Notes under the pieces: model-generated
The model's input: the letters and a program-made list of their open reading frames with translations, nothing else
What the model was told of the DNA's origin: nothing
Database searches by the model: none
Translations under genes and position numbers: made by a program
Source of the DNA: an uncultured Bacteroidota bacterium
GTDB taxonomy: Bacteria; Bacteroidota; Bacteroidia; Bacteroidales; P3
DNA length: 42,687 bases
Assembly (NCBI GenBank): GCA_902783595.1
Contig: CACZRR010000040.1
Location: forward strand, 1-42,687
Direction of reading: 5' to 3'
In this document: in pieces, positions 8,141 to 41,813 of the stretch
Layout of the letters: each line of letters opens with the position of its first letter
How positions within the stretch are numbered: the stretch's first letter is position 1

Positions 8141-8587
8141 TCATTCGGTCTCACCTTTGAGACGTCCCTTCATATAATGATTAGAAAAGACAAGCAGATA
8201 GGGATGCTCTGACGAAGGCGTAGAAAAGCAAATAATACCCTCCTCGCGTTGCGGTATCTGGGTAAGAAAATCGTAGAAAGAATACTGATAAAAACTCATT
8301 ACATTGAGATCAACCACAAAAGAAACAGATAGCTTTTCGCCCGTCAGGATGTCGGTGAGCTCGTTGATGTTGAAGGTGAGTGCGCCCTGCGGGATGGTGT
8401 CGCTCACATCCATCATGCTCTGCGAGATCATGCAGCGGTACTCGAACTTCTCGGGAGCAACGGCCTTATATTCCTCCATGCGCTGCATGTCACCTTTAAA
8501 GAAAGGCAACATGATAGCGTCGCAATCTTGCGCTTTGAGGCCTCCAAAGGCCATAAGCATAGCAGCAACAGCAATAATCTTTTTCAT
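8141..8587 (-). CDS. Small secreted protein of unknown function, partner of the T9SS cargo gene
   Basis: A 148-residue product with a signal peptide (MKKIIAVAAMLMAFGGLKAQ) and a mature part of about 128 residues with no domain I recognise. The sequence GDMQRMEEYKAVAPEKFEYR is followed by alternating hydrophobic strands (LSVSFVVDLNVMSFYQYSFY), suggesting a small mixed alpha/beta fold. It could be periplasmic or outer-membrane associated; there is no lipobox. Its stop lies within four bases of a possible start of the T9SS cargo gene, so the two are almost certainly translated from one message and may work together. It begins 69 bases after rnfE in the slot where rnfA is normally found, but bears no resemblance to RnfA, which is an integral membrane protein. 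Confidence 0.75.
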   Translation of the reverse strand: MKKIIAVAAMLMAFGGLKAQDCDAIMLPFFKGDMQRMEEYKAVAPEKFEYRCMISQSMMDVSDTIPQGALTFNINELTDILTGEKLSVSFVVDLNVMSFYQYSFYDFLTQIPQREEGIICFSTPSSEHPYLLVFSNHYMKGRLKGETE

Positions 8588-8656
8588 GCTCTGTTTTACT
8601 CTTGTTTGCCTATAAGAGGCATTGGAACCCCTTAAGAGCTCAGCAATTAATTATTT

Positions 8657-9256
8657 TTAAGATTTTTTAACGCTTCTGTGGCGAAGGTGGTTGATGAGAG
8701 CCATGAGGAGGCCGAGGGCGATGAAGCCGCCAGGAGGCAGAATCATCATAAGCATGCCGTCGGCGCCGCCGATGAGGCTATGACCAAATATGCAACCTGT
8801 GCCGAGAAGTTCGCGAACCATGCCGATGAGCGTGAGAGCCCAGGTGAAGCCGAGGCCCATGAAGATGCCGTCGAGAGCCGAATGGCCGACGCCATTCTTG
8901 GAGGCGAAAGCTTCGGCGCGGCCGAGCACAATGCAGTTCACAACGATAAGTGGGATAAAGAGGCCGAGGGTCTCGTACATATCGGACATATAGGCCTGCA
9001 TAACCATCTGCACGATAGTCACGAAGGTGGCGATGACAACGATGAATGCGGGGATGCGGACCTTATCGGGGATAACACTCTTGAGGAGCGAGATGACGAT
9101 GTTGGACATCATCAGTACGAAAGCGGTAGCAAGGCCCATCATCATGCCGTTAATAGCCGAGGTGGTGGTAGCCAGCGTGGGGCACATACCGAGGATAAGC
9201 ACCCAGGTGGGGTTCTCTTTGATGAGACCGTTTTTGATAATATCTTTTGCGTTCAT
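8657..9256 (-). CDS. rnfE: Rnf complex subunit E (membrane)
   Basis: RnfE is one of two related six-helix membrane subunits that share an intramembrane iron-sulfur cluster in the ferredoxin:NAD+ Rnf pump. The 199-residue protein is almost wholly hydrophobic and keeps the two half-membrane cysteines of the family, C25 (GMCPTLATTT) and C108 (VNCIVLGRAEAFA). The ending PPGGFIALGLLMALIN is also typical. It follows rnfG by 24 bases and is the last rnf gene seen. Its partner RnfA, which supplies the matching cysteine pair, is not encoded downstream or anywhere else in the window. Confidence 0.95.
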   Translation of the reverse strand: MNAKDIIKNGLIKENPTWVLILGMCPTLATTTSAINGMMMGLATAFVLMMSNIVISLLKSVIPDKVRIPAFIVVIATFVTIVQMVMQAYMSDMYETLGLFIPLIVVNCIVLGRAEAFASKNGVGHSALDGIFMGLGFTWALTLIGMVRELLGTGCIFGHSLIGGADGMLMMILPPGGFIALGLLMALINHLRHRSVKKS

Positions 9257-9280
9257 AGCTACGTATTGTTGAGGGGGGTG

Positions 9281-9838
9281 TTATTGAATCTTGCTGAAGA
9301 CGGTATAGGCCTGGTTAATGGCGCTGAGGAAGGCGCGGGAAGTGATGGTAGAACCACTGATGGCATCAACACTGCCGCCATCCTTCTTAACCTTGAGTTC
9401 GTCGGAGGGGTTGAGTCCTATGACAGATCCTTTGCCATCCTTCTGGAACCATTCACCCGCTTTGGCGCCGAGGCCGGGGGTCTCATGGCTCTCGAGGATG
9501 CTGTAGCCGTAGACATTGCCGTCCTTGTCGAAGCCCACCATAACCTGGAGATGACCGCCGAAGCCTTCGTCGTTACCAGCCTCGATAGCGGCGCCCACGA
9601 TGTTGCCGTCAGCGTCGAGAGCCACATTGGCTGCTGCACCGTCGATATCACGGTTTTCTATGGTCTCGAAGGGGGGCAACACAGCCTTGATAGCTGCCTG
9701 TACTTTAGCCTCTTGAGCTTGTGCTATGGGTTCCTGCGTGACACCGTTGACAGCGGCGAGGGCGGCGGCAGCCACGAGGGCTATAACCGTCAGCGAGAGG
9801 AGCATATTGATAAGTGTGGATTGTGCTTTCTTTGCCAT
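9281..9838 (-). CDS. rnfG: Rnf complex subunit G (covalent FMN, periplasmic)
   Basis: RnfG carries a covalently bound FMN on the outer face of the membrane and takes part in electron transfer inside Rnf. The 185-residue protein has one N-terminal membrane anchor (about 8-30) and an FMN-binding domain with ETPGLGAKAGEWF (119-131). The flavinylation motif is SGST at 161-164 within DAISGSTITS; the Thr at 164 is the expected phosphoester site. It lies 25 bases after rnfD and 24 before rnfE. No flavin transferase gene (apbE) is seen in the window, though one must exist elsewhere for this protein to mature. Confidence 0.95.
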   Translation of the reverse strand: MAKKAQSTLINMLLSLTVIALVAAAALAAVNGVTQEPIAQAQEAKVQAAIKAVLPPFETIENRDIDGAAANVALDADGNIVGAAIEAGNDEGFGGHLQVMVGFDKDGNVYGYSILESHETPGLGAKAGEWFQKDGKGSVIGLNPSDELKVKKDGGSVDAISGSTITSRAFLSAINQAYTVFSKIQ

Positions 9839-9863
9839 AACTTTAATCTTTAAACGTTAACCT

Positions 9864-10823
9864 TTACTCAGCGAAGCGTGCGGGCTTGCACCAGCGGTTG
9901 ATAAGGGGAGTGACACTATTCATTAGGAGGATGGCGAAACTGACGCCTTCGGGATAGGCACCCCAGTTGCGGATGATAATGGTGAGGAGGCCGCAACCGA
10001 CACCGAAGATGAGCTGACCACTCTTAGCCATCGGAGAGGTAACCATATCGGTAGCCATGAAGCAGGCGCCGAGCATGATGCCGCCGGTGAAGAGGGTCAT
10101 CAGGGGATCCATGTACTGATCGGGATTCACAAGCCAAAGGATGGCGCTGAAGATGAACGCTGTGCCGATAAATGACACGGGAATATGCCAAGAGATGATC
10201 TTCTTCCAGCAGAGGTAGGCGGCACCGATAAGGATAGCCAATGCCGACACTTCACCCATAGAGCCACCGATGTGGCCGAGGAAGGCATCCCAGAGCGTCA
10301 CGTCGCTGCCCAAGGAGCCCTCTTTGAAAGCCGCAAGGGGGGTGGCACCGGTGGCGAGGTCAAAGTGCATGGGGAAGATGCCGTCGACGACGGGCCATGT
10401 GGTCATCTGGACGGGGAAGGAGATGAGGAGGAAGACACGTCCCACGAGGGCGGGGTTAAAGGGATTCTTGCCGAGTCCACCAAAGGTCATCTTGCCAATA
10501 CCAATGGCTACAAGGGCACCAATGATAACGATCCACATCATGGAAGGCGTAGCGGGGACATTGAAGGCCAACAAGAGACCTGTCACCACGGCAGAGCCAT
10601 CGCAGATGGTGGTGGGCACCTTGAGGATGAATTTCTCAATGAGCCACTGGAAAAGCACACAACTCACCACGGCGATGATGCTTACCAGCAGGGCGTTGAT
10701 GCCAAAGTAGGCTATGGCCACCAGCAGAGCGGGGATAAGGGCCATATTGACGCGCCACATGATTTTCTTGGTCGACTCGTCGCTGTGCACGTGGGGCGAG
10801 CCCGATATATTTAATAGATTCAT
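9864..10823 (-). CDS. rnfD: Rnf complex subunit D (membrane, covalent FMN)
   Basis: RnfD is a multi-helix membrane subunit of the Rnf pump with covalent FMN and is held to be part of the ion path. The 319-residue protein begins with a short soluble N-terminus (SGSPHVHSDEST) typical of the family, followed by many hydrophobic helices. The flavinylation motif TGAT is at 168-171 (FDLATGATPLAAF), and the conserved GGLGKNPFNPALVGRVFL is at about 125-141. It begins 36 bases after rnfC ends and is part of the rnfBCDGE series. Confidence 0.96.
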   Translation of the reverse strand: MNLLNISGSPHVHSDESTKKIMWRVNMALIPALLVAIAYFGINALLVSIIAVVSCVLFQWLIEKFILKVPTTICDGSAVVTGLLLAFNVPATPSMMWIVIIGALVAIGIGKMTFGGLGKNPFNPALVGRVFLLISFPVQMTTWPVVDGIFPMHFDLATGATPLAAFKEGSLGSDVTLWDAFLGHIGGSMGEVSALAILIGAAYLCWKKIISWHIPVSFIGTAFIFSAILWLVNPDQYMDPLMTLFTGGIMLGACFMATDMVTSPMAKSGQLIFGVGCGLLTIIIRNWGAYPEGVSFAILLMNSVTPLINRWCKPARFAE

Positions 10824-10859
10824 AATTATTATAATATTTTCCGGGTTAAAAGAGATGGG

Positions 10860-12188
10860 TTATTTCTTAGCGGCCATCATGGCGCGAACCTTGTTCTTAC
10901 CGAGACGTATCTCGTCGGTGAGAGGCTTGTTGGCGGGGCAGCTAAAGAAGCAGCATCCGCACTCTATGCAGTCGAGAATATTGTGCTTCTGAGCATCCTC
11001 GATACGGCCATTCTTTACCAATGCTGAGAAGAGGTAGGGCTCAAGACCCATAGGGCAGGCGTGCATACACTTACCACAGCGGATGCATGCGGTCTCAGGA
11101 TTGCGGCGGGCCTCGCCTTCGTCCATCACCAGCACACTACTATTGCCCTTCACCGTCGGGGCGTCGAGGTTCACCACAGCCCTACCCATCATGGTGCCAC
11201 CACTGATCACCTTACCGGTAGTGTCGGGAAGCTGGCCAATAGCGTGCTTGATGATGTCGTTGTAGGTTGTACCAATGCGGACGATGTAGTTGTGCTGCGA
11301 CGGCAACTTCTTGCCCGTCACGGTGAGAATATTCTCGATGAGGGGTTTATTCTTCTGCACGGCCTCGTAGACAGCAAAGGAGGTACCAAGGTTGGATACC
11401 ACGCAACCCACGTCGATGGGCAGCTTGCCACTGGGCACCTTACGGCCGGTAACGGCGTTGATGAGCTGTTTCTCGGCACCCTGGGGGTACTTCACCTTCA
11501 AGGGCTCGATGACGATACCCTCGAATTGCTTGGCCACCTCTTGCATCTTAGCAATAGCGAGAGGTTTGTTGTTCTCGATGCCGATGTAGGCGTTGGGGAC
11601 ACCGAGTGCCTTGCGGAGGATGCTGACACCGATGCAGACCTCTTCGGGGTGTTCCATCATCACACGGTAGTCGCTGGTGAGGTAGGGCTCACACTCAGCG
11701 GCGTTGATGATGAGATATTCGGCCTTCTTGCCCTCCGGAATATTGTATTTGATGTGTGCGGGGAATGTGGCGCCACCAAGACCCACAATACCCATCTCCT
11801 TGAGCTTGGCAACGATAGCCTGAGGCTCGAGGGTGCACTCGCGCTTAATGTCGGGAGTGCGGTCGATGGTCTCCTGCCATTCGTCGCCCTCCACGGTGAT
11901 GTAGACGGCAGGCTTGGTGATGCCAAAGGCGTCCTTGACGGTGTCGACCTTGAGGACGGTACCGCTGACAGGGGAATGGACGTTGGCGCACATAAAGGCC
12001 TGAGCTTCTCCGATGAGCTGGCCTACCTTCACCTTGTCTCCCTTCTGCACCACGGGGGTAGCGGGAGCACCAAGGTGCTGGTTCATCATCACCACCATCT
12101 GTGCCGGTACGGGCATCACCTCGATGGCGGCGTCATTGGATATCTTATTCTCTTCGGGGTGTACACCACCCATTTTGAATGTTTTCAT
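10860..12188 (-). CDS. rnfC: Rnf complex subunit C (NADH/flavin and 2 x [4Fe-4S])
   Basis: RnfC is the peripheral subunit that carries the NAD(H) site and is related to NuoF/HydB-type proteins. The 442-residue product starts MKTFKMGGVHPEENK, has the Gly-rich segment GLGGATFPAHIKYN used for flavin and nucleotide binding, and ends with two ferredoxin-like clusters: C368, C371, C374, C378 (CIRCGKCMHACP) and C407, C410, C413, C417 (CIECGCCFFSCP). The C-terminus is short and Lys-rich, without the long Ala-rich tail of proteobacterial RnfC. It follows rnfB by 50 bases. Confidence 0.96.
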   Translation of the reverse strand: MKTFKMGGVHPEENKISNDAAIEVMPVPAQMVVMMNQHLGAPATPVVQKGDKVKVGQLIGEAQAFMCANVHSPVSGTVLKVDTVKDAFGITKPAVYITVEGDEWQETIDRTPDIKRECTLEPQAIVAKLKEMGIVGLGGATFPAHIKYNIPEGKKAEYLIINAAECEPYLTSDYRVMMEHPEEVCIGVSILRKALGVPNAYIGIENNKPLAIAKMQEVAKQFEGIVIEPLKVKYPQGAEKQLINAVTGRKVPSGKLPIDVGCVVSNLGTSFAVYEAVQKNKPLIENILTVTGKKLPSQHNYIVRIGTTYNDIIKHAIGQLPDTTGKVISGGTMMGRAVVNLDAPTVKGNSSVLVMDEGEARRNPETACIRCGKCMHACPMGLEPYLFSALVKNGRIEDAQKHNILDCIECGCCFFSCPANKPLTDEIRLGKNKVRAMMAAKK

Positions 12189-18928: not shown

Positions 18929-20476
18929 ATGACAACCATTCTTTGGGCCGACGACGAGATTGAACTACTGAAGCCTCACATCCTCTTTCTCGAAGAGCAT
19001 GGTTACCACGTTGTTCCCGTTCAAAGCGGACGCGACGCTCTCGACGAGCTGGAGGGCGGGCTCCCCGACCTGGTGTTCCTCGACGAGCAGATGGCGGGGC
19101 TCAGCGGCATCGACACGCTGCGCCGCATCAAGGAACGCTGGCCGCAGCTGCCCGTAGTAATGATCACCAAGAGCGAGGAGGAGCACATCATGGAGGACGC
19201 ACTGGGGGGCAAAATATCGGACTACCTGATCAAGCCCGTCAACCCCAACCAGATACTGCTGACAGTGAAGAAGCACACGGAGATGCGGCGACTGCAGAGC
19301 GAACACAGCACACAGGGCTACCAGCAGCAGTTCCGGGAGATAGGTACCCAGCTCTCGGACCGCATGAGCAGCGACGAGTGGATGGAGGTGTACCGGCGGC
19401 TGGTATACTGGGACTTGGAACTGGCACGCAGCGACGACGACAATATCCACGACATATTCCGTTCGCAGTGGCGCGACGCCAACCAGCTGTTTTGTCGGTG
19501 GTATGAGCGAAACTATGAAGCGTGGCTTGGAGGCAGCGAGGAGAAACCCACGTTGTCACCCATGGTACTTAACGAGAAGTTGTTCCCACTGCTCAAGGAG
19601 GGACGTCCGACCTTTTTGATTGTCATCGACAACTTCCGCTACGACCAGTGGAAGTACGTGCAGTCTGTCATCGAGCAGTACCTGCGCACGGTGCGAGAGG
19701 ACCTGTACATGACCATTCTGCCCACCACGACGCAGTTTGCACGCAATGCCATGTTTGCGGGGCTGATGCCCAGTGAGATAGAGCGCAAATACCCGCAGTA
19801 CTGGATCAACGAAGACGAGGAGGGGTACAAGAACGAATACGAACACGAACTGCTGGACGAGAACCTGCGACGTCATGGGCTGAACATCAAACACAGCTAC
19901 CACAAGGTGCTCAACGCGCAGTACGGCAAGCGGCTGTCGGAGCGCTTGGGGGAGCTGATGCACAACGGGCTGAACGTGATCATCTACAACTTCATCGACA
20001 TGCTGAGTCACGCGAGCACTGACAGCGACATTGTACGCGAGCTGGCGGACAGCGAGGTGGCCTACCGCTCACTGACGCTGTCGTGGCTTGAGCATTCACC
20101 GTTGCTGGAGATCCTGAAGGTTCTGGGGAACAGCGACGCCAACGTGGTGATCACCACGGACCACGGGAGTGTGAGGGTGGACCGCGCGGTGCGAGTGCGT
20201 GGGGACCGCGCCATCAGCGTCAACCTGCGCTACAAACAGGGGCGCCTGATGGACTACAACGCCAAGGAGGTGTACGAGGTGAAAGATGCGGCGAGGGTGT
20301 TCCTGCCGAAGCGACACGTCACGTCACCCTACATCTTCGCGCGCGGCACAGACTTCTTTGTATATCCCAACAATATGAACCAGTTTGTGCAGTACTATGG
20401 CGGCACCTTCCAGCATGGAGGAGTGTCGATGGAGGAGGTAATGGTACCATTTGTTGTAATGAGGGGTAAAGGGTAA
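18929..20476 (+). CDS. porX: PorX-type response regulator with PglZ domain (T9SS regulator)
   Basis: A 515-residue protein with an N-terminal receiver domain (acidic D8-D9, phospho-acceptor D52 in VFLDEQM, K102 in LIKPV) and a C-terminal PglZ/alkaline-phosphatase-like domain at about 200-510 (FLIVIDNFRYDQWK, TTTQFARNAMF, NFIDMLSHAS, ITTDHGSVRV). This architecture defines PorX, the response regulator that controls type IX secretion genes in Bacteroidota; its PglZ domain is known to be a metal-dependent phosphodiesterase. The metal-binding residues look intact. Its histidine kinase PorY is not in the window. The stop codon falls in a GGGTAAAGGGTAAACC stretch of filler. The presence of a type B T9SS cargo at 5-8 kb supports a working system. 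Confidence 0.93.
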   Translation: MTTILWADDEIELLKPHILFLEEHGYHVVPVQSGRDALDELEGGLPDLVFLDEQMAGLSGIDTLRRIKERWPQLPVVMITKSEEEHIMEDALGGKISDYLIKPVNPNQILLTVKKHTEMRRLQSEHSTQGYQQQFREIGTQLSDRMSSDEWMEVYRRLVYWDLELARSDDDNIHDIFRSQWRDANQLFCRWYERNYEAWLGGSEEKPTLSPMVLNEKLFPLLKEGRPTFLIVIDNFRYDQWKYVQSVIEQYLRTVREDLYMTILPTTTQFARNAMFAGLMPSEIERKYPQYWINEDEEGYKNEYEHELLDENLRRHGLNIKHSYHKVLNAQYGKRLSERLGELMHNGLNVIIYNFIDMLSHASTDSDIVRELADSEVAYRSLTLSWLEHSPLLEILKVLGNSDANVVITTDHGSVRVDRAVRVRGDRAISVNLRYKQGRLMDYNAKEVYEVKDAARVFLPKRHVTSPYIFARGTDFFVYPNNMNQFVQYYGGTFQHGGVSMEEVMVPFVVMRGKG

Positions 20477-35916: not shown

Positions 35917-37008
35917 TTACAACACTTTAAAACTTCCGCTGATACACCCACCGATGCTGTCACAACGTGCTCCTGTCACCGACGACAGGCTATTTTCGCT
36001 CCCCTCAACACGCAGATAACCCAACAAAGCAAAGATAAGAGCCTCTTTATAGCTCACAATCAGTGGGTCGGGCACTGTCACCTGGGTATGCGGCGCATAG
36101 TGTCTTATCTGTTCTATCAGGAAGGTGTTAAAGGCGCCACCACCCGTGACAAGCATCATCGCCGCCTGACCACAAGCAGCAGCCACCTGACGGGCGATAT
36201 GATCGGTCACGGTGCGCAACTTGTCGGCAACAGAAAGTGCTGAAGAGTCAAGAATAGAACGAAAATCCGTCAGAAACCACTCCTTCCCCAACGATTTGGG
36301 AGCCGGCTGCCGGTAGTAGCCGATGGCGTCGAGACGCGCCAAAAGGTCGGCATCGAGACAGCCGCCGCGAGCCACTTCCCCACCCTCGTCATAGTCGAGA
36401 CCCAGCATGGCGGCAAGACCATTGAGCGCCATATTGCAAGGACAGATATCGTAGGCAATACGCGACTTCCGCCCTCCCCCCTCCGACTTCCTATAGCTGA
36501 TATTGGCAAAACCACCCAGATTGAGGCAGGCGTCATAGTCGGCAAAGAAAAGCTCGTCGCCGATGGGAACCAAAGGCGCGCCCTGCCCTCCAAGAGCCAC
36601 GTCTAGGGTGCGAAAATCACCAATGGTGGCTATGCCCGTCTCCGCAGCGATGGCATTGATGTCGCCAATCTGCGTCGTGAATCCATAAGATGGGATACCA
36701 TCTTCTGTCGCCATCGGTTTCACTGGCTGGTGGAAGATGGTATGACCATGTGAGGCGATGTACTGCGGGCGAGGTTTTTCCTGCAAGAAACGGCACACAC
36801 ACTGGCCAAAGTAGTGCCCCAGGTCGCTATGGGTGCGGGCGAGGTCGAGAGCCGATCCTCCCTCGAGGTTTGCCAGACGCCGACGCCACATCTCAGGATA
36901 GGCATAGGTGGCAGCAGCCAGCACACGGTAGCGGTGCTGGCTGATGTCACAGAGGGCAAGGTCGAGACCGTCGAGCGAGGTACCCGACATGAGACCGAGG
37001 ATAAGCAT
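35917..37008 (-). CDS. anmK: Anhydro-N-acetylmuramic acid kinase AnmK
   Basis: AnmK phosphorylates and opens 1,6-anhydro-MurNAc during cell-wall recycling. The 363-residue protein starts with the ATP motif GLMSGTSLDGLDLAL (5-19) and contains ASHGHTIFHQP, the catalytic-region segment IGDFRTLDVALGGQGAPLVP, NLGGFANISY, DICPCNMALNGLA, and the late VTGGGAFNTFL. The correct start is 37008; a much longer open frame reaching 37248 overlaps the hydrogenase gene and is spurious. Between FANISY and IAYDICPCN an insert (RKSEGGGRKS) is encoded by a GGTCGGAG-type repeat. The gene begins 4 bases after the hydrogenase stop, so it is co-transcribed with the hydrogenase cluster although the functions are unrelated. 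Confidence 0.93.
   Translation of the reverse strand: MLILGLMSGTSLDGLDLALCDISQHRYRVLAAATYAYPEMWRRRLANLEGGSALDLARTHSDLGHYFGQCVCRFLQEKPRPQYIASHGHTIFHQPVKPMATEDGIPSYGFTTQIGDINAIAAETGIATIGDFRTLDVALGGQGAPLVPIGDELFFADYDACLNLGGFANISYRKSEGGGRKSRIAYDICPCNMALNGLAAMLGLDYDEGGEVARGGCLDADLLARLDAIGYYRQPAPKSLGKEWFLTDFRSILDSSALSVADKLRTVTDHIARQVAAACGQAAMMLVTGGGAFNTFLIEQIRHYAPHTQVTVPDPLIVSYKEALIFALLGYLRVEGSENSLSSVTGARCDSIGGCISGSFKVL
36463..36491 (-). repeat. GGTCGGAG-type micro-repeat inside anmK
   Basis: The coding strand reads GGAAGTCGGAGGGGGGAGGG, then CGGAAGTCG: two GGAAGTCG words around a G-rich core, encoding RKSEGGGRKS in a loop between conserved strands. Confidence 0.65.
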
Positions 37009-37012
37009 ACCG

Positions 37013-38476
37013 TTATTCCTCTTTCTTGTCGCCAAAGGCCATATGGTAGAGACGCACAGAGCCGTCGACGGTCTTCTCCTTGGCGGAGTTGCCGTATTTG
37101 TCGACGTCGAAGACGTTCTTGGGCGAACGGGTGATGGAGAGGGGACCTCCCACACAGCCGCCGTCGCAGGCCATACCCTCAAAGAAGTTGGCGGTCTCCT
37201 TCTTGGCACGCAACAAGGTGAGGTGCTGACGGCACTGGTCGATGCCATTCATCACACAGGGCTTGACACCTTCGACGCCAAGCTGCTTGGCGACGTCGGC
37301 GACACCCTGGGCAAGGCCTCCGCTCTTGGCAAAGATACGCCCGTAGAACGAGGCATTGTCGAGGACGGTGTCCTCCAACTGCGTGGTGTCGATGTCGCGA
37401 GCATCGACGAAGGCCTGCAATTCCTCGAAGCTCATGACGCTGTCGATCATGCCGCCGGTTTTCTCAAGGGTATACTCGAATTTCTTGGCGGCGCAGGGCC
37501 CTATGAAGACCACCTTGGCAGTGGGGTCGCTATGCTTGATGAGGCGCGCCGTCATCACCATGGGCGACACAGAGGAGGATATAGCGTCCTTAAGTTCGGG
37601 GAAGTTGGTCTCGACAAAACGCACGAAAGCAGGACAGCACGACGTGGTCATCACAGGATTCTCCATCGTCTCAACCTTCTCCTTGAATTCATGAGCCTCG
37701 TTGTAGAGGGTGATGTCGGCGCCGAGGGCCGCTTCGACAACTTGGAAGAATCCGAGCTTCTTGATGGCGGTGGCGACCTGCTCGATGCGGCCGAAGCGAC
37801 ACTGGCTGACGATAGCGGGGGCTATGACAGCATAGACGCGGTATTTGGTATTGTCGGCGGAACCCTGGAGCATCTTGATGATATCAAGGACAAGGCTCTT
37901 GTCGCTGATGGCACCGAAGGGGCAGCTGACGATACAGGCACCGCAGGAGATACACTTGGAGTTGTCGATGACAGCTTTGTCCTCATCGTTGATGCTGATG
38001 GCCTTCACCTTGCAGCTCTTGATGCAGGGACGACGCTGGGCGATGATGGCACTGTAGGGACATGCGGCGGCACATTTACCGCACTCGATACACTTGCTCT
38101 TGTCGATATGGCAACGGTGGTCAACGATGGTGATAGCATCCTTGGGACAGACCTCCTTGCATGAGTGCATAAGGCATCCGCGGCATACGTCGGTCACCAT
38201 CATGCCGCCGGCAGGGCATTCGTCGCAAGCCTCATAGAGCACCTCGACAACATTGGGGTTCTCTTTGTTCCCTCCCATAGCCAGACGTACACGGTCCATC
38301 AACACAGCACGCTCCTTGTGGATGCAGCAGCACGTGTCGGGCTTGGGACCCGGGGCAATGGCGCGGGGAATGGTGTAGGCATCTTCGAGGCCTCCCTCGT
38401 AGGCACGGCGAATAACCTCCTTGAGCACCCTGTACTTAATCCACTGTACGTTAGTATCAAAAAGTTTCTGTTCCAT
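37013..38476 (-). CDS. Monomeric [FeFe] hydrogenase, group B type
   Basis: A 487-residue cytoplasmic enzyme expected to make or consume H2 with ferredoxin. The N-terminal part is Cys-rich: CCC at 49-51, C84/C87, C98/C101/C106/C110, then ferredoxin motifs CIECGKCAAAC (129-139) and CISCGACIVSC (175-185). The H-cluster loops are all present: L1 TTSCCPAF with C280 and C281, L2 FIGPCAAKK with C328, and L3 EGMACDGGCVGGP with C437 and C441. The Cys-rich N-terminus and the loop forms fit group B hydrogenases, common in gut Bacteroidota and Clostridia; the group call is from memory of those loops. The maturation genes hydE, hydF and hydG are not in the window. It follows the phosphatase gene by 21 bases and precedes anmK by 4. 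Confidence 0.88.
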   Translation of the reverse strand: MEQKLFDTNVQWIKYRVLKEVIRRAYEGGLEDAYTIPRAIAPGPKPDTCCCIHKERAVLMDRVRLAMGGNKENPNVVEVLYEACDECPAGGMMVTDVCRGCLMHSCKEVCPKDAITIVDHRCHIDKSKCIECGKCAAACPYSAIIAQRRPCIKSCKVKAISINDEDKAVIDNSKCISCGACIVSCPFGAISDKSLVLDIIKMLQGSADNTKYRVYAVIAPAIVSQCRFGRIEQVATAIKKLGFFQVVEAALGADITLYNEAHEFKEKVETMENPVMTTSCCPAFVRFVETNFPELKDAISSSVSPMVMTARLIKHSDPTAKVVFIGPCAAKKFEYTLEKTGGMIDSVMSFEELQAFVDARDIDTTQLEDTVLDNASFYGRIFAKSGGLAQGVADVAKQLGVEGVKPCVMNGIDQCRQHLTLLRAKKETANFFEGMACDGGCVGGPLSITRSPKNVFDVDKYGNSAKEKTVDGSVRLYHMAFGDKKEE

Positions 38477-38497
38477 ATTTATTATTCTTTTCTCTTC

Positions 38498-39691
38498 CTA
38501 ATCATAGTTAACGGTCACCACCTTGCCCATCTGGCGGAGGTTGGCGGCGATATGTTCCACAAGCTTGAGCTTCATGGTGATGTCAATCTCGAGACCCGCA
38601 TGAGCGGCGTTGACGTTCTGGCCGACAAAGAAAACGACATGTGTGGCCTCTTCGAAGATAATGTTGGCAAGCAGCGAGCCACCGTCTTTCTTGGCGTAGG
38701 TCTTGGGCGTGAGGTCTTTTGCCGACACATATTTCTCGGATAACGCCACAAGACGGCGCAAGGTGATGACACCCTCGGTGGTGAGGTCTATACCGTCAAT
38801 AAAGCCGATGGGCGGCACATCCTTGTCGGGGAAGTCGAAAGAGGTCTTCAACTGACGGCCCAAACAGCGCGCCACAACCTGCGAGGTGGTGCCACCGCAG
38901 ACGATACGCTTGTCGGCACCGTCCATGAAGCGCTGCACATACTCTGCGTCGCGCTCCTTGTCGACGGGAGGTCCCACCATGATGTGCACCTCGCAGCGCG
39001 GACAGAAGCGCACGGCGGCAACGGTGGTGTCGTCGCCAGGCTTGTCGAGGTAGAGGTCGTTGCAGGCCGACGCCAGCAGGCAAGCGGCAGCGCGTGCCGA
39101 CATATGGGAATCGATGTAATGATCGAGATGGGCCATGATATCCTTACGCTGCCAGCCAAAGTTGAGCATCTGACCGATACCGGCATGGATAGTACCGTCG
39201 CTCATAACGAAAACCATGTCACCCTCGTCGAGATGGAGGTCGGAGTGATAGACCTTCTTATCGAAGATCACCAGCTCGTTACGTTGCAGGTCGGCGGTGT
39301 GGCCTTGATGGTACCAGATGGCCTCTGGGTTGTCAAATTCGAAAAGGTGCCCCTCGCCGCGCTCATTGACGTGTATGACGGAAAAGGTACTATAGGCCAC
39401 CTGGCGTTCCTTGCAGACGGGGAGCGTCTGGATGATGGTGCCCACACAATCCTCCATATCGGCCCCTCCGGCCACCATGGTGCACAAGATCTTGCTGGTG
39501 AGTGTGGAAAGGATATTGGCCTTCACGCCGCTACCCAAGCCATCGGCAAGCACAAGGGTGGTCCATCTCTCCGGCTCGCCGCCGTCAGCAGAGGGCTGCT
39601 CCTGCACACTGATCTCCACATTATCACCACAGAGCTCCTCTCCATAGTGATTCAATGAGGTATATCCGTATTCAACGCAATGCTTTGCCAT
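38498..39691 (-). CDS. SpoIIE/PP2C-type serine phosphatase with extra C-terminal domain, hydrogenase-linked
   Basis: A 397-residue soluble protein. Residues 1-229 are a PP2C/SpoIIE phosphatase: GDN at 22-24, LADGLGSG at 48-55, VMSDG at 172-176 and KPGDDTTVAAVRF at 217-229, so the metal-binding acids are in place. Residues 230-397 form a second domain (CPRCEVHIMVGPPVDKERD, RIVCGGTTSQVVARCLG, GFIDGIDLTTEGVITL) that I do not recognise outside such phosphatases. It lies between hydS and the group B hydrogenase. Phosphatases of this type accompany HydS sensory hydrogenases in other anaerobes, so it probably relays the HydS signal by removing phosphate from an unknown protein. No anti-sigma factor, STAS protein or kinase gene is near. 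Confidence 0.87.
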   Translation of the reverse strand: MAKHCVEYGYTSLNHYGEELCGDNVEISVQEQPSADGGEPERWTTLVLADGLGSGVKANILSTLTSKILCTMVAGGADMEDCVGTIIQTLPVCKERQVAYSTFSVIHVNERGEGHLFEFDNPEAIWYHQGHTADLQRNELVIFDKKVYHSDLHLDEGDMVFVMSDGTIHAGIGQMLNFGWQRKDIMAHLDHYIDSHMSARAAACLLASACNDLYLDKPGDDTTVAAVRFCPRCEVHIMVGPPVDKERDAEYVQRFMDGADKRIVCGGTTSQVVARCLGRQLKTSFDFPDKDVPPIGFIDGIDLTTEGVITLRRLVALSEKYVSAKDLTPKTYAKKDGGSLLANIIFEEATHVVFFVGQNVNAAHAGLEIDITMKLKLVEHIAANLRQMGKVVTVNYD

Positions 39692-39718
39692 CTCTTTAGA
39701 TTTTAGCCCTTAAATATT

Positions 39719-41470
39719 TCACACTTTCGCCGTTTTCCAGTCGGTGGGACGACCGTCGACGCCAAGGTCCCCCTTGCCGTCGGAGAGGGATTTCTTCAGT
39801 TTCAAGAGGGCCACTTTGGTCTCCGCCGTCGTCTCGCCAAGCAGCGAGGCGATCTCCTGTGCCACCCTCATCTGCTTCATAATAAGTTCATCCGTGGTGC
39901 TGATGGTGTCCATGCGCACCTTCTCGAGCTTCTTGTCGTAGTTCACAGAGTCCGAGATGTCCTTCATAAGTCCGAAGAGCAGATTCTGGTCGCCCAGAAG
40001 GCTGACAGTGAGACTCAGGTAACGACCCGTGGCGGGGATATGGATGCACGGATTCTCGACACGCATCTTGCGCGAATAGGCGTTGTAGAAGTCGATCGGC
40101 TGGAAGCTCTCGGCAACAGGACGTCCCTTGACGTTCTCGGGAGTGCCCTGCAGACCCAGCATCGCCATGGCGGAAGCATTGATATCAAAGATGTTCATAT
40201 CGGGATCGACGATAATGACACCCTCGGGCGAATGGCGCACAATGTCGATAGCCAAACTCTCGGCGCGCTTGCGCATGTAGGGAAGGCAGATATCGATGTC
40301 GGCATAGCCGTTGACCACCGCCCAGGCCTTCTCGCGGCAGGTGCGGTAACCGCAGGCGCCACAATCCAGCTCATCTTCTTTGGTGAATTTGCCGGTGCGA
40401 TGCAGCACATCCTCTATCTCCGCTTCGGTAGCCGGACGACTCTTGGCGCGCAAACGCGGGTGGGCATAGGACAAACTCACACCAGCATCGGGAGCGGGAG
40501 TGTGCCTGCGCGTAGCCATCTCACGGTCCACATAGGCATTGATATCGCTCTCCGCCTTCACAACACCACCCTCTCGCACTATGGAGCAGGGACCATTGAT
40601 ACAGCCCCCTGGACACACATTCATCTCGATGAACACATGATCCATGTTCTCTATATTCTCCAACACTTCGGCCAGACGATCCACACCGTCGACCGACATA
40701 TACCGGTAGCCCTCGGGAAGGGCATCAAATGAGCGTATGATGCCTGCTGTGGCAGGGTAACCCTTGGCACGGTTGGCACCCAGGTTGTCCTGCGTAACAG
40801 CAAGATGATTGATATTGGCAAAATCGATGCCATTCTCCTCGAATAGCTGCTGCAGTTCCTCGAAGGTGATGACAGCATCGATACCATGCTCGTCGGCCTC
40901 ACGCTTCTTGGCGATGCAGGGACCTATGAAGACAATCTTAAGATCGGGACTGTTCTTGCGCAGCATCTTGGCATGCGCCACCATGGGCGAATCGACAGGA
41001 GCCAGGTAGGGCAACGCCATGGGATAGTACATCTGTATCAGGCGGCAGGCGGCAGGACAGGCAGAGGTGATGAAGTTACGCATCTCGCCACCGGCAAGCA
41101 CACGCTTGTACTCTTCGGTGACGGCCTGAGCGCCTATTGCGGTCTCCTCGGCGATGGCAAAACCCAACTTGGCAAGGGCAATATGGAGCGCCGTGAAGTC
41201 CTCCTGTCCCAAGCTGCTGATGAAGGAAGGAGCAACGGTGGCGGCAACACGGTCACCACTCTTCAGCATGGCGCGCACCACGTCGAGCTCGCTGTGCTCC
41301 ACCTTGGCATGCTGCGGACAGACCTTGGTACAATGTCCACAGAGGATACAATGCTCCTCGATAATCTGGGCATGATGGTCTTTAATGTTGATAGCCTTCA
41401 CCGGGCACTCCCGCAGACAGCGGTAGCAGTCCTTACAGCGGACAGGCTTAAACTCCAAATATTCCGACAT
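39719..41470 (-). CDS. hydS: HydS-type (group C) [FeFe] hydrogenase homologue with PAS domain
   Basis: A 583-residue putative H2/redox sensor. Order: two [4Fe-4S] ferredoxin motifs (C12, C15, C18, C22; C41, C44, C47, C51); an H-cluster domain with L1 TSACPAAC (135-142), L2 FIGPCIAKK (C185) and L3 EMNVCPGGC (C286, C290); an RnfB-like Fe-S motif (C370, C373, C378, C395); a PAS domain at about 405-515 (IVRHSPEGVIIVDPDMNIFD); and a helical tail. In L1 the first of the usual two cysteines is Ala137, as reported for sensory group C enzymes, while the four cluster ligands remain. The PAS and helical tail suggest signal output. It follows the thioredoxin-like ferredoxin gene by 43 bases and precedes the phosphatase by 27. 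Confidence 0.87.
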   Translation of the reverse strand: MSEYLEFKPVRCKDCYRCLRECPVKAINIKDHHAQIIEEHCILCGHCTKVCPQHAKVEHSELDVVRAMLKSGDRVAATVAPSFISSLGQEDFTALHIALAKLGFAIAEETAIGAQAVTEEYKRVLAGGEMRNFITSACPAACRLIQMYYPMALPYLAPVDSPMVAHAKMLRKNSPDLKIVFIGPCIAKKREADEHGIDAVITFEELQQLFEENGIDFANINHLAVTQDNLGANRAKGYPATAGIIRSFDALPEGYRYMSVDGVDRLAEVLENIENMDHVFIEMNVCPGGCINGPCSIVREGGVVKAESDINAYVDREMATRRHTPAPDAGVSLSYAHPRLRAKSRPATEAEIEDVLHRTGKFTKEDELDCGACGYRTCREKAWAVVNGYADIDICLPYMRKRAESLAIDIVRHSPEGVIIVDPDMNIFDINASAMAMLGLQGTPENVKGRPVAESFQPIDFYNAYSRKMRVENPCIHIPATGRYLSLTVSLLGDQNLLFGLMKDISDSVNYDKKLEKVRMDTISTTDELIMKQMRVAQEIASLLGETTAETKVALLKLKKSLSDGKGDLGVDGRPTDWKTAKV

Positions 41471-41513
41471 TTCTTCTCTGTATTTTCCATTTAAAAATCA
41501 AGAGCCTAAATCG

Positions 41514-41813
41514 TCACGCCACCCCCAGCTTGGGATATATCTCGGTGGCAAAAAGCTCTTCCACATTGCCCGCATTGACGCCATGTATGAAGAACCCTTC
41601 AGGGGTCTCCTCCACCTGGGGACCACGAGCGGCAGGCTCGGTACCCTCATAGATCACTGTGACACCCGTGGCACAATGGCCCAAACAAAAACTTGCCTGC
41701 AGCTCTATCACATCCTCCACATCGTACTTTTTCAGCACCTCTTTGAAGGCCTCAATCACCTCATAGGAACCCTTCAGGTGACACGAACTGCCAACACAAA
41801 CCTTGATAGTCAT
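41514..41813 (-). CDS. Thioredoxin-like [2Fe-2S] ferredoxin (NuoE/HydC-like)
   Basis: A 99-residue protein with the [2Fe-2S] ligands C6, C11, C43 and C47 (VCVGSSCHLKG and FCLGHCATG), the C-x4-C...C-x3-C spacing of NuoE and of the small subunit of electron-bifurcating hydrogenases. It lacks the N-terminal helical domain of NuoE and so is a stand-alone electron carrier. As first gene of the cluster, 43 bases before hydS, it may exchange electrons with HydS or the group B enzyme. A promoter-like site lies at 41859-41866, divergent from the ridA promoter. Confidence 0.88.
   Translation of the reverse strand: MTIKVCVGSSCHLKGSYEVIEAFKEVLKKYDVEDVIELQASFCLGHCATGVTVIYEGTEPAARGPQVEETPEGFFIHGVNAGNVEELFATEIYPKLGVA

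What the first reader, a model, noticed from the sequence alone, without database searches (positions are those of the whole stretch)
37013..41813. Putative hydrogen-sensing circuit: thioredoxin-like ferredoxin, HydS, SpoIIE phosphatase and a catalytic group B hydrogenase in one operon
Four tightly spaced minus-strand genes pair a PAS-tailed, catalytically altered [FeFe] hydrogenase homologue with a PP2C/SpoIIE phosphatase and an intact hydrogenase. HydS-type proteins next to phosphatases are known in other anaerobes and proposed to sense H2. Here the likely target enzyme is in the same operon, suggesting feedback on H2 production. No kinase, STAS or anti-sigma gene is nearby, so the phosphatase substrate is unknown, and no hydEFG maturation genes are present.
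Basis: partly seen in the sequence, partly recalled or inferred. Interest (0 to 1): 0.75.

Follow-up and report, generated by a model that had tools for sequence, protein, structure and literature searches.

The report
Known-type hydrogen-sensing operon in rumen Bacteroidales
A gut bacterium, probably from the rumen, carries a four-gene unit of a kind already known from other anaerobes, in which a hydrogen-gas sensor probably controls a protein phosphatase next to the enzyme that makes hydrogen; the reading is sound but mostly not new.

Summary
A minus-strand operon encodes a thioredoxin-like [2Fe-2S] ferredoxin, HydS (H-domain, extra Fe-S cluster, PAS), a SpoIIE-type phosphatase and a group B [FeFe] hydrogenase. 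It is of the known phosphatase-linked sensory type (HydDB group C3), with the gene order of hfsABCD and of the Ruminococcus albus hydS/hydA2 cluster. HydS groups with R. albus HydS, apart from catalytic hydrogenases. Among 80 loci picked for likeness to it, the phosphatase follows HydS in 77 of 77 with room and the ferredoxin precedes it in 76 of 78. HydF and HydG lie elsewhere in the genome. Published R. albus data show induction at high H2, not a brake. What I add: (1) the unit groups inside Clostridia, unlike the version in the window's own family; (2) adhE, rex and a kinase, frequent neighbours elsewhere, are not beside it, and seven close relatives show no AdhE-length match; (3) the phosphatase has a conserved C-terminal domain without Pfam match; (4) HydS ends in an invariant tail, a candidate phosphatase contact. 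Signal, sign and substrate are unproven.

The parts
41514..41813 (-). thioredoxin-like [2Fe-2S] ferredoxin (HfsA position), four cysteine ligands
   Evidence: PF01257 E 2.9e-6; CX3-4C...CX3C in 78 of 78 sequences (window plus the best ferredoxin match of 77 of the 80 loci)
39719..41470 (-). HydS (HfsB): ferredoxin-like clusters, H-domain, PF04060 Fe-S, PAS, C-terminal tail
   Evidence: tree; residues
40589..41251 (-). HydS H-domain (aa 74-294)
   Evidence: PF02906 5.8e-47; place
39950..40243 (-). HydS PAS domain (aa 410-507)
   Evidence: PF13426/PF00989
39803..39865 (-). HydS tail (aa 536-556) with Q538, A541, L544, G545, E546; candidate phosphatase contact
   Evidence: these five identical in 79 of 79 core HydS and in 22-24 of 24 distant Bacteroidales HydS; the function is inference
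38498..39691 (-). SpoIIE/PP2C phosphatase (HfsC)
   Evidence: PF07228 1.4e-12; D23, D50, D165, D220, D221 in 43 of 43; model pLDDT 91.8, Foldseek SpoIIE 2.9e-14
38501..39001 (-). unnamed conserved C-terminal domain of the phosphatase (aa 231-397)
   Evidence: no Pfam match; 10 invariant columns in 43 sequences; model pLDDT 87.7; no PDB match at E<=1e-3
37013..38476 (-). catalytic group B [FeFe] hydrogenase (HfsD / HydA2 position)
   Evidence: TIGR04105 534.5 over 450; CCP motif in 55 of 55 HydB of over 400 aa and over 45% identity, window included
35917..37008 (-). anmK, 4 bases downstream, possibly co-transcribed but not a conserved neighbour
   Evidence: PF03702; sequence; no AnmK match printed for the 80 loci

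Best explanation
It is a phosphatase-linked (group C3) H2-sensing operon. HydS carries an intact H-cluster site that binds or slowly oxidises H2. Electrons pass through its Fe-S clusters, with the small ferredoxin as redox partner, to the PAS domain and invariant tail. The tail sets the activity of the SpoIIE-type phosphatase, perhaps through its unnamed C-terminal domain. The phosphatase dephosphorylates an unidentified protein that controls transcription of the operon and thus of the group B hydrogenase, the only catalytic [FeFe] hydrogenase found in this assembly. By analogy with R. albus, high H2 raises expression. Shown here: genes, conserved order, conserved ligand and phosphatase residues, maturation genes in the genome. 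Inferred: H2 as signal, HydS-phosphatase contact, substrate and sign.
For: Domains and residues. HydS clade separate from groups A and B, 100/99. Phosphatase next to HydS in 77 of 77 loci, ferredoxin in 76 of 78, group B hydrogenase downstream in 60 of 74. HydS stop and phosphatase start lie within -60..50 bases in 97 of 101 loci and overlap in 65 (start codons chosen by me). HydF, HydG present. A PF02906 search gives only these two hydrogenases in the assembly. Literature: R. albus cluster 111-fold down in H2-consuming co-culture (PMC6776011 passage); HydA2 90-fold lower (PMC10838669 passage); hfsA or hfsB deletions raise ethanol only if hfsC and hfsD remain, placing the phosphatase downstream of HydS (PMC5707799 sections 3-5; the hfsA deletion also lowered hfsBCD expression). 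In Bacteroidales a related H-domain protein is fused straight to a histidine kinase (L031, L032), supporting a signalling role for the H-domain.
Against: No experiment on this organism. Published signs disagree: R. albus suggests activation at high H2, Thermoanaerobacterium suggests that HfsA/B restrain HfsC. No HydS-phosphatase fusion was found, so contact is unproven. 43 of 79 core HydS keep the proton-transfer Cys, so some may be catalytic. No regulator or kinase adjoins the window operon and no shared upstream DNA motif was seen. Fourteen of 74 loci lack the group B gene next door, three of them Bacteroidales of the window type (L061, L062, L073).
Confidence: 0.62

Rival explanations
1. 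HydS with the small ferredoxin and neighbours is mainly a working hydrogenase (or subunit), not a sensor; the PAS and phosphatase parts are accessory.
For: H-cluster cysteines conserved; 43 of 79 core HydS keep the proton-transfer Cys. A 2026 paper suggests HfsABC might form a functional hydrogenase without HfsD (PMC13277313 passage).
Against: Phosphatase adjacency in 77 of 77; window HydS has Ala137; the two characterised HydS proteins have very low activity (PMC11376134 passage); kinase-fused homologues.
Confidence: 0.12
2. The unit senses intracellular redox state (ferredoxin or NADH) rather than H2 itself, with the H-domain acting as an electron gate.
For: Small ferredoxin nearly always beside it (76 of 78); rex upstream in 19 of 62 loci; rex upstream of the ferredoxin gene in L047, a near relative with 86% identical HydS.
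Against: The four H-cluster cysteines are conserved in 79 of 79 core HydS and HydE is found in 14 of 14 carriers, though the catalytic hydrogenase alone would also require it.
Confidence: 0.18
3. The phosphatase acts directly on a metabolic enzyme (the hydrogenase or a fermentation enzyme), not on a transcription pathway.
For: In T. saccharolyticum NADH-ADH activity rose without a matching ALDH change, read by the authors as possible post-transcriptional control (PMC5707799). No STAS or anti-sigma gene is beside the operon.
Against: The 90- to 111-fold changes in R. albus are transcript changes; SpoIIE/RsbU-type phosphatases classically act in partner switching (recalled).
Confidence: 0.2

Closest known systems
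hfsABCD operon of Thermoanaerobacterium saccharolyticum
   Same: Order small first gene, PAS-hydrogenase, serine phosphatase, hydrogenase (PMC11837493 passage, PMC5707799 sections).
   Different: Host is a thermophilic Firmicute there and a Bacteroidales here. HfsA is described as not aligning well with any known protein (PMC11837493), whereas the first gene here matches the PF01257 ferredoxin family; I had no hfs sequence to compare directly.
Ruminococcus albus hydS/hydA2 cluster (R. albus 8 = L118)
   Same: Fd-HydS-phosphatase-hydrogenase; HydS 39%, HydB 52% identity.
   Different: R. albus 8 has LysR, rex, adhE, an APH/RIO-like kinase and a second ferredoxin upstream; none adjoins the window operon. 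Greening 2019 calls the R. albus 7 enzyme group A1, whereas the R. albus 8 gene scores as group B (579.8 over 450).
HydDB [FeFe] group C3, phosphatase-linked (putative)
   Same: H-domain sensor beside a Ser/Thr phosphatase (table in PMC5037454).
   Different: No difference found; HydDB's own classifier was not available.
HydDB [FeFe] group C1, histidine-kinase-linked (putative)
   Same: Related H-domain with N-terminal clusters and PF04060; two Bacteroidales examples scanned, L031 and L032.
   Different: Output is a fused HisKA-HATPase; no phosphatase match within the loci held.

Membership tests
[FeFe] group C3 sensory hydrogenase | H-domain plus PAS | tested here: met
   PF02906, PF13426/PF00989
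[FeFe] group C3 sensory hydrogenase | separate from catalytic groups A and B in a tree, with R. albus HydS | tested here: met
   44 hand-picked rows, HydS against A/B 100/99; the program warns that long branches meet at this split
[FeFe] group C3 sensory hydrogenase | encoded next to a Ser/Thr phosphatase | tested here: met
   window; 77 of 77 loci with room
[FeFe] group C3 sensory hydrogenase | HydDB cluster assignment | not testable with these tools
   web classifier not available
[FeFe] group C3 sensory hydrogenase | low activity and H2-dependent signalling | not testable with these tools
   needs biochemistry
hfsABCD operon | four genes in this order | tested here: met
   order as described in PMC11837493; sequences not compared
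R. albus hydS/hydA2 cluster with ethanol branch | adhE, rex and kinase in the same cluster | tested here: not met
   not beside the window operon; no PF25137 (Fe-ADH) or PF06971 (Rex N-domain) match in the 80.3% complete assembly
group B [FeFe] hydrogenase (last gene) | TIGR04105 over cut-off and CCP motif | tested here: met
   534.5 over 450
SpoIIE-type PP2C phosphatase (third gene) | conserved Asp set and PP2C fold | tested here: met
   43 of 43; Foldseek 5mqh 2.9e-14

The most novel reading that the evidence does not exclude
The Fd-HydS-phosphatase trio is a portable H2-signalling cassette. An invariant HydS tail talks to an undescribed alpha/beta receiver domain on a dedicated phosphatase. 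The cassette crossed from Clostridia into Bacteroidales, replaced the native version in one lineage and shed its ethanol-pathway output, so that its remaining neighbouring target there is the group B hydrogenase, the only catalytic [FeFe] hydrogenase found in this assembly.
Probability: 0.35. Interest if true: 0.55.

Novelty: new member of a known kind. Interest (0 to 1): 0.36.

Why it matters
H2 concentration steers fermentation and methane formation in the rumen and gut, yet how group C [FeFe] hydrogenases pass on a signal is unknown (stated in a 2024 review, PMC11376134 passage). A short operon with one sensor, one phosphatase and one catalytic hydrogenase, with no adhE, rex or kinase gene beside it, is a simple test case. 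The invariant tail and the unnamed phosphatase domain name the parts to test.

Tried and rejected
Rex box upstream of the ferredoxin gene: the best window match has 4 mismatches and 158 of 200 shuffles do as well; of 9 upstream regions the best is L046 (3 mismatches, 15 of 200 shuffles as good), so none is convincing. HydS-phosphatase gene fusion as proof of contact: none in the L007-L032 and L045-L124 loci. Anti-sigma kinase near the operon: the only HATPase_c_2 match in the assembly lies on another contig next to another SpoIIE gene. Loss of HydE: set down to an incomplete assembly, since 14 of 14 carrier genomes have it. Known fold for the phosphatase C-terminal domain: best Foldseek E 5.4e-3 with TM 0.32; methylglyoxal-synthase matches TM 0.37-0.41; best sequence-profile hit phosphoheptose isomerase, E 0.016; not enough to name it.
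Full report
1. What is there. The window is G000:C40:1-42687 of a 1.77 Mb, 112-contig assembly given as 80.3% complete, probably a metagenome-assembled genome. The closest named relatives are Bacteroidales records with RUG names; that RUG stands for rumen uncultured genomes is recalled, so 'rumen' is an inference. On the minus strand lie, in order, a 99-aa thioredoxin-like [2Fe-2S] ferredoxin (41813-41514), HydS (583 aa, 41470-39719), a SpoIIE-type phosphatase (397 aa, 39691-38498) and a group B [FeFe] hydrogenase (487 aa, 38476-37013), then anmK 4 bases further on, and meaB. Family matches are far above chance: PF02906 at 5.8e-47 for HydS and 1.4e-63 for the last gene, PF07228 at 1.4e-12, PF01257 at 2.9e-6. 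The last gene passes TIGR04105 (534.5, cut-off 450) and HydS does not (201.6). A PF02906 search of the assembly returns only these two genes.

2. Residues. Counts are over 79 'core' HydS: the window plus those of the 80 loci with more than 500 aa (L076 and L088 dropped). C138, C185, C286, C290 and the other cysteines examined are present in 79 of 79, except one gap at C12. At the proton-transfer position the window has Ala137; core HydS have C 43, A 32, S 3, D 1, and 24 distant Bacteroidales HydS have A 15, C 7, S 1, G 1. Ala fits published sensory enzymes (about 43% Ala; PMC10055695 passage) but is not diagnostic. The CCP motif is in 55 of 55 HydB (over 400 aa and over 45% identity). Phosphatase aspartates D23, D50, D165, D220 and D221 are invariant in 43 of 43, so it is probably active.

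3. Tree. In a tree of 44 hand-picked rows over the shared hydrogenase region, HydS proteins (window, R. albus 8 and others) form one side of a branch (100/99) against groups A and B; group B is one clade (100/99) that holds the window hydrogenase and the R. albus 8 one. The program warns that long branches meet at the A-to-HydS join.

4. Gene order. Setting aside loci cut by contig ends: phosphatase follows HydS in 77 of 77, ferredoxin precedes it in 76 of 78 (misses L084, L099), group B hydrogenase follows in 60 of 74. Of the 14 misses, six (L070, L083, L086, L104, L109, L113) have NuoF and a group A-like hydrogenase nearby instead; eight (L061, L062, L064, L073, L084, L092, L103, L106) show neither within the flank held, and some flanks are short. 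In the order-level search (295 genomes) the 30 best loci were read: of L004-L030, 26 of 26 with room have the phosphatase (L006 is cut), and L031 and L032 are the kinase-fused type without it. HydS stop and phosphatase start overlap in 65 of 101 loci, most often by 8 bases (start codons picked by script). The constant core is thus ferredoxin-HydS-phosphatase; the enzyme beside it varies.

5. Neighbours elsewhere. Upstream on the same strand (within 6.5 kb; the kinase within 1.6 kb), with enough flank, are an Fe-ADH (often bifunctional AdhE, sometimes a shorter ADH as in L052 and L109) in 23 of 62 loci, rex in 19 of 62, LysR in 11 of 62 and an APH/RIO-like kinase in 18 of 74. R. albus 8 (L118) has LysR-rex-adhE-kinase-Fd-Fd-HydS-phosphatase-hydrogenase. 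The window has none of these beside it. Its assembly has no PF25137 (Fe-ADH) or PF06971 (Rex) match, but it is incomplete. Seven close relatives (L045-L050, L060; genomes G295-G301, completeness not given) have Fe-ADH matches only in frames of 362-598 aa, none of AdhE length; Rex is found in 6 of the 7. In one of them, L047 (86% HydS identity), rex lies upstream of the ferredoxin, 215 bases away. So adhE is probably not the output in this lineage. All 7 keep the group B gene in the unit; three other window-type Bacteroidales (L061, L062, L073) do not show it.

6. Maturation. HydF (411.9 bits with its neighbour in the frame, cut-off 325.55) and HydG (494.1, cut-off 312.15) are in the assembly on other contigs. 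HydE is not found over cut-off there but is in 14 of 14 carrier genomes. The H-clusters can therefore very probably be made.

7. Descent. The trees place window-type Bacteroidales sequences among Clostridia: HydB and HydS (for HydB the Bacteroidales set has 99/98 and lies in a 9-row set, 100/100, with Clostridia), phosphatase. Holding all Bacteroidota together is rejected for HydS (p-AU 0.003) and phosphatase (p-AU 0.013), on quick trees and with the groups named after the first tree had been seen, which weakens the test. Several inner branches are unstarred, and roots are for drawing only. Three members of the window's own family (G079, G183, G273) carry instead a native type of 31-35% identity; where classified, that type also has a group B hydrogenase downstream (L133 from G183, and L142). 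Transfer from a Clostridia-like donor, with replacement of the native version, is the simplest reading. Deep paralogy, an unfound native copy in the missing fifth of the assembly, and mislabelled records are caveats: L090, labelled Alistipes, groups with Clostridia and was counted there.

8. Phosphatase and tail. The phosphatase model is confident (mean pLDDT 91.8). Its N-terminal part matches SpoIIE structures (5mqh, E 2.9e-14). Residues 231-397 form a separate alpha/beta domain with ten invariant columns in 43 sequences, no Pfam match and no PDB match at E<=1e-3. The HydS tail after PAS has Q538, A541, L544, G545 and E546 identical in 79 of 79 core sequences and in 22-24 of 24 distant ones; the aligned region of the two kinase-fused homologues differs. 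I propose tail-to-domain contact; this is inference.

9. Literature seen. PMC5707799: abstract and sections 3-5. PMC11837493, PMC11376134, PMC10055695, PMC10838669, PMC13277313, PMC6288185 (nothing relevant), PMC5037454, PMC6776011, PMC9562222, PMC10823672 and PMC12578642: passages only. The R. albus 7 paper (PMC4248817) is not held; its description of aad, kinase, phosphatase and repressor in one transcript is recalled. HydDB lists C3 as 'Phosphatase-linked (putative)' and C1 as 'Histidine kinase-linked (putative)'. Greening 2019 reports 111-fold down-regulation of an eight-gene R. albus cluster in H2-consuming co-culture and proposes direct H2 sensing. Eminoglu 2017: hfsA or hfsB deletions raise ethanol and adhE, hfsC, hfsD or whole-operon deletions do not; the hfsB deletion raised and the whole-operon deletion lowered hydrogenase activity; the hfsA deletion also lowered hfsBCD expression.

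10. Verdict. Observation confirmed; interpretation partly right and largely known. What is new here is the host lineage, the missing ethanol branch, the transfer history and two unexplained conserved parts. My searches for such units of Bacteroidales in print listed gut and rumen papers that mention group C; the listings and the passages I read hold no description of this operon in Bacteroidales, but most subscription journals are not covered and most listed papers were not opened.

Noticed in passing
window 8141-12188, minus strand: RnfC and RnfD genes in a run of minus-strand ORFs that looks like an rnf operon, about 25 kb from the hydrogenase operon; another ferredoxin user on the same contig.
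   Followed up: no
window 18929-20476: Response-regulator receiver fused to a PglZ domain; no partner identified.
   Followed up: no
L031, L032: Bacteroidales HydS-like H-domain proteins fused directly to HisKA-HATPase beside a group A hydrogenase (L031 by family scan; L032 by tree only); many roughly 660-aa matches look alike but were not scanned.
   Followed up: partly
L138: Two HydS-phosphatase pairs in tandem in one Bacteroidales genome.
   Followed up: no
own genome, contig C55 8006-8997: Another SpoIIE phosphatase followed at once by a HATPase_c_2 domain, a possible partner-switching module.
   Followed up: no
L118 6710-7474: APH/RIO-like kinase family just upstream of the ferredoxin-HydS-phosphatase unit in 18 of 74 loci; a natural counterpart of the phosphatase.
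   Followed up: partly
L090: Contig from a record labelled Alistipes senegalensis whose phosphatase groups with Ruminococcus; probable contamination.
   Followed up: no
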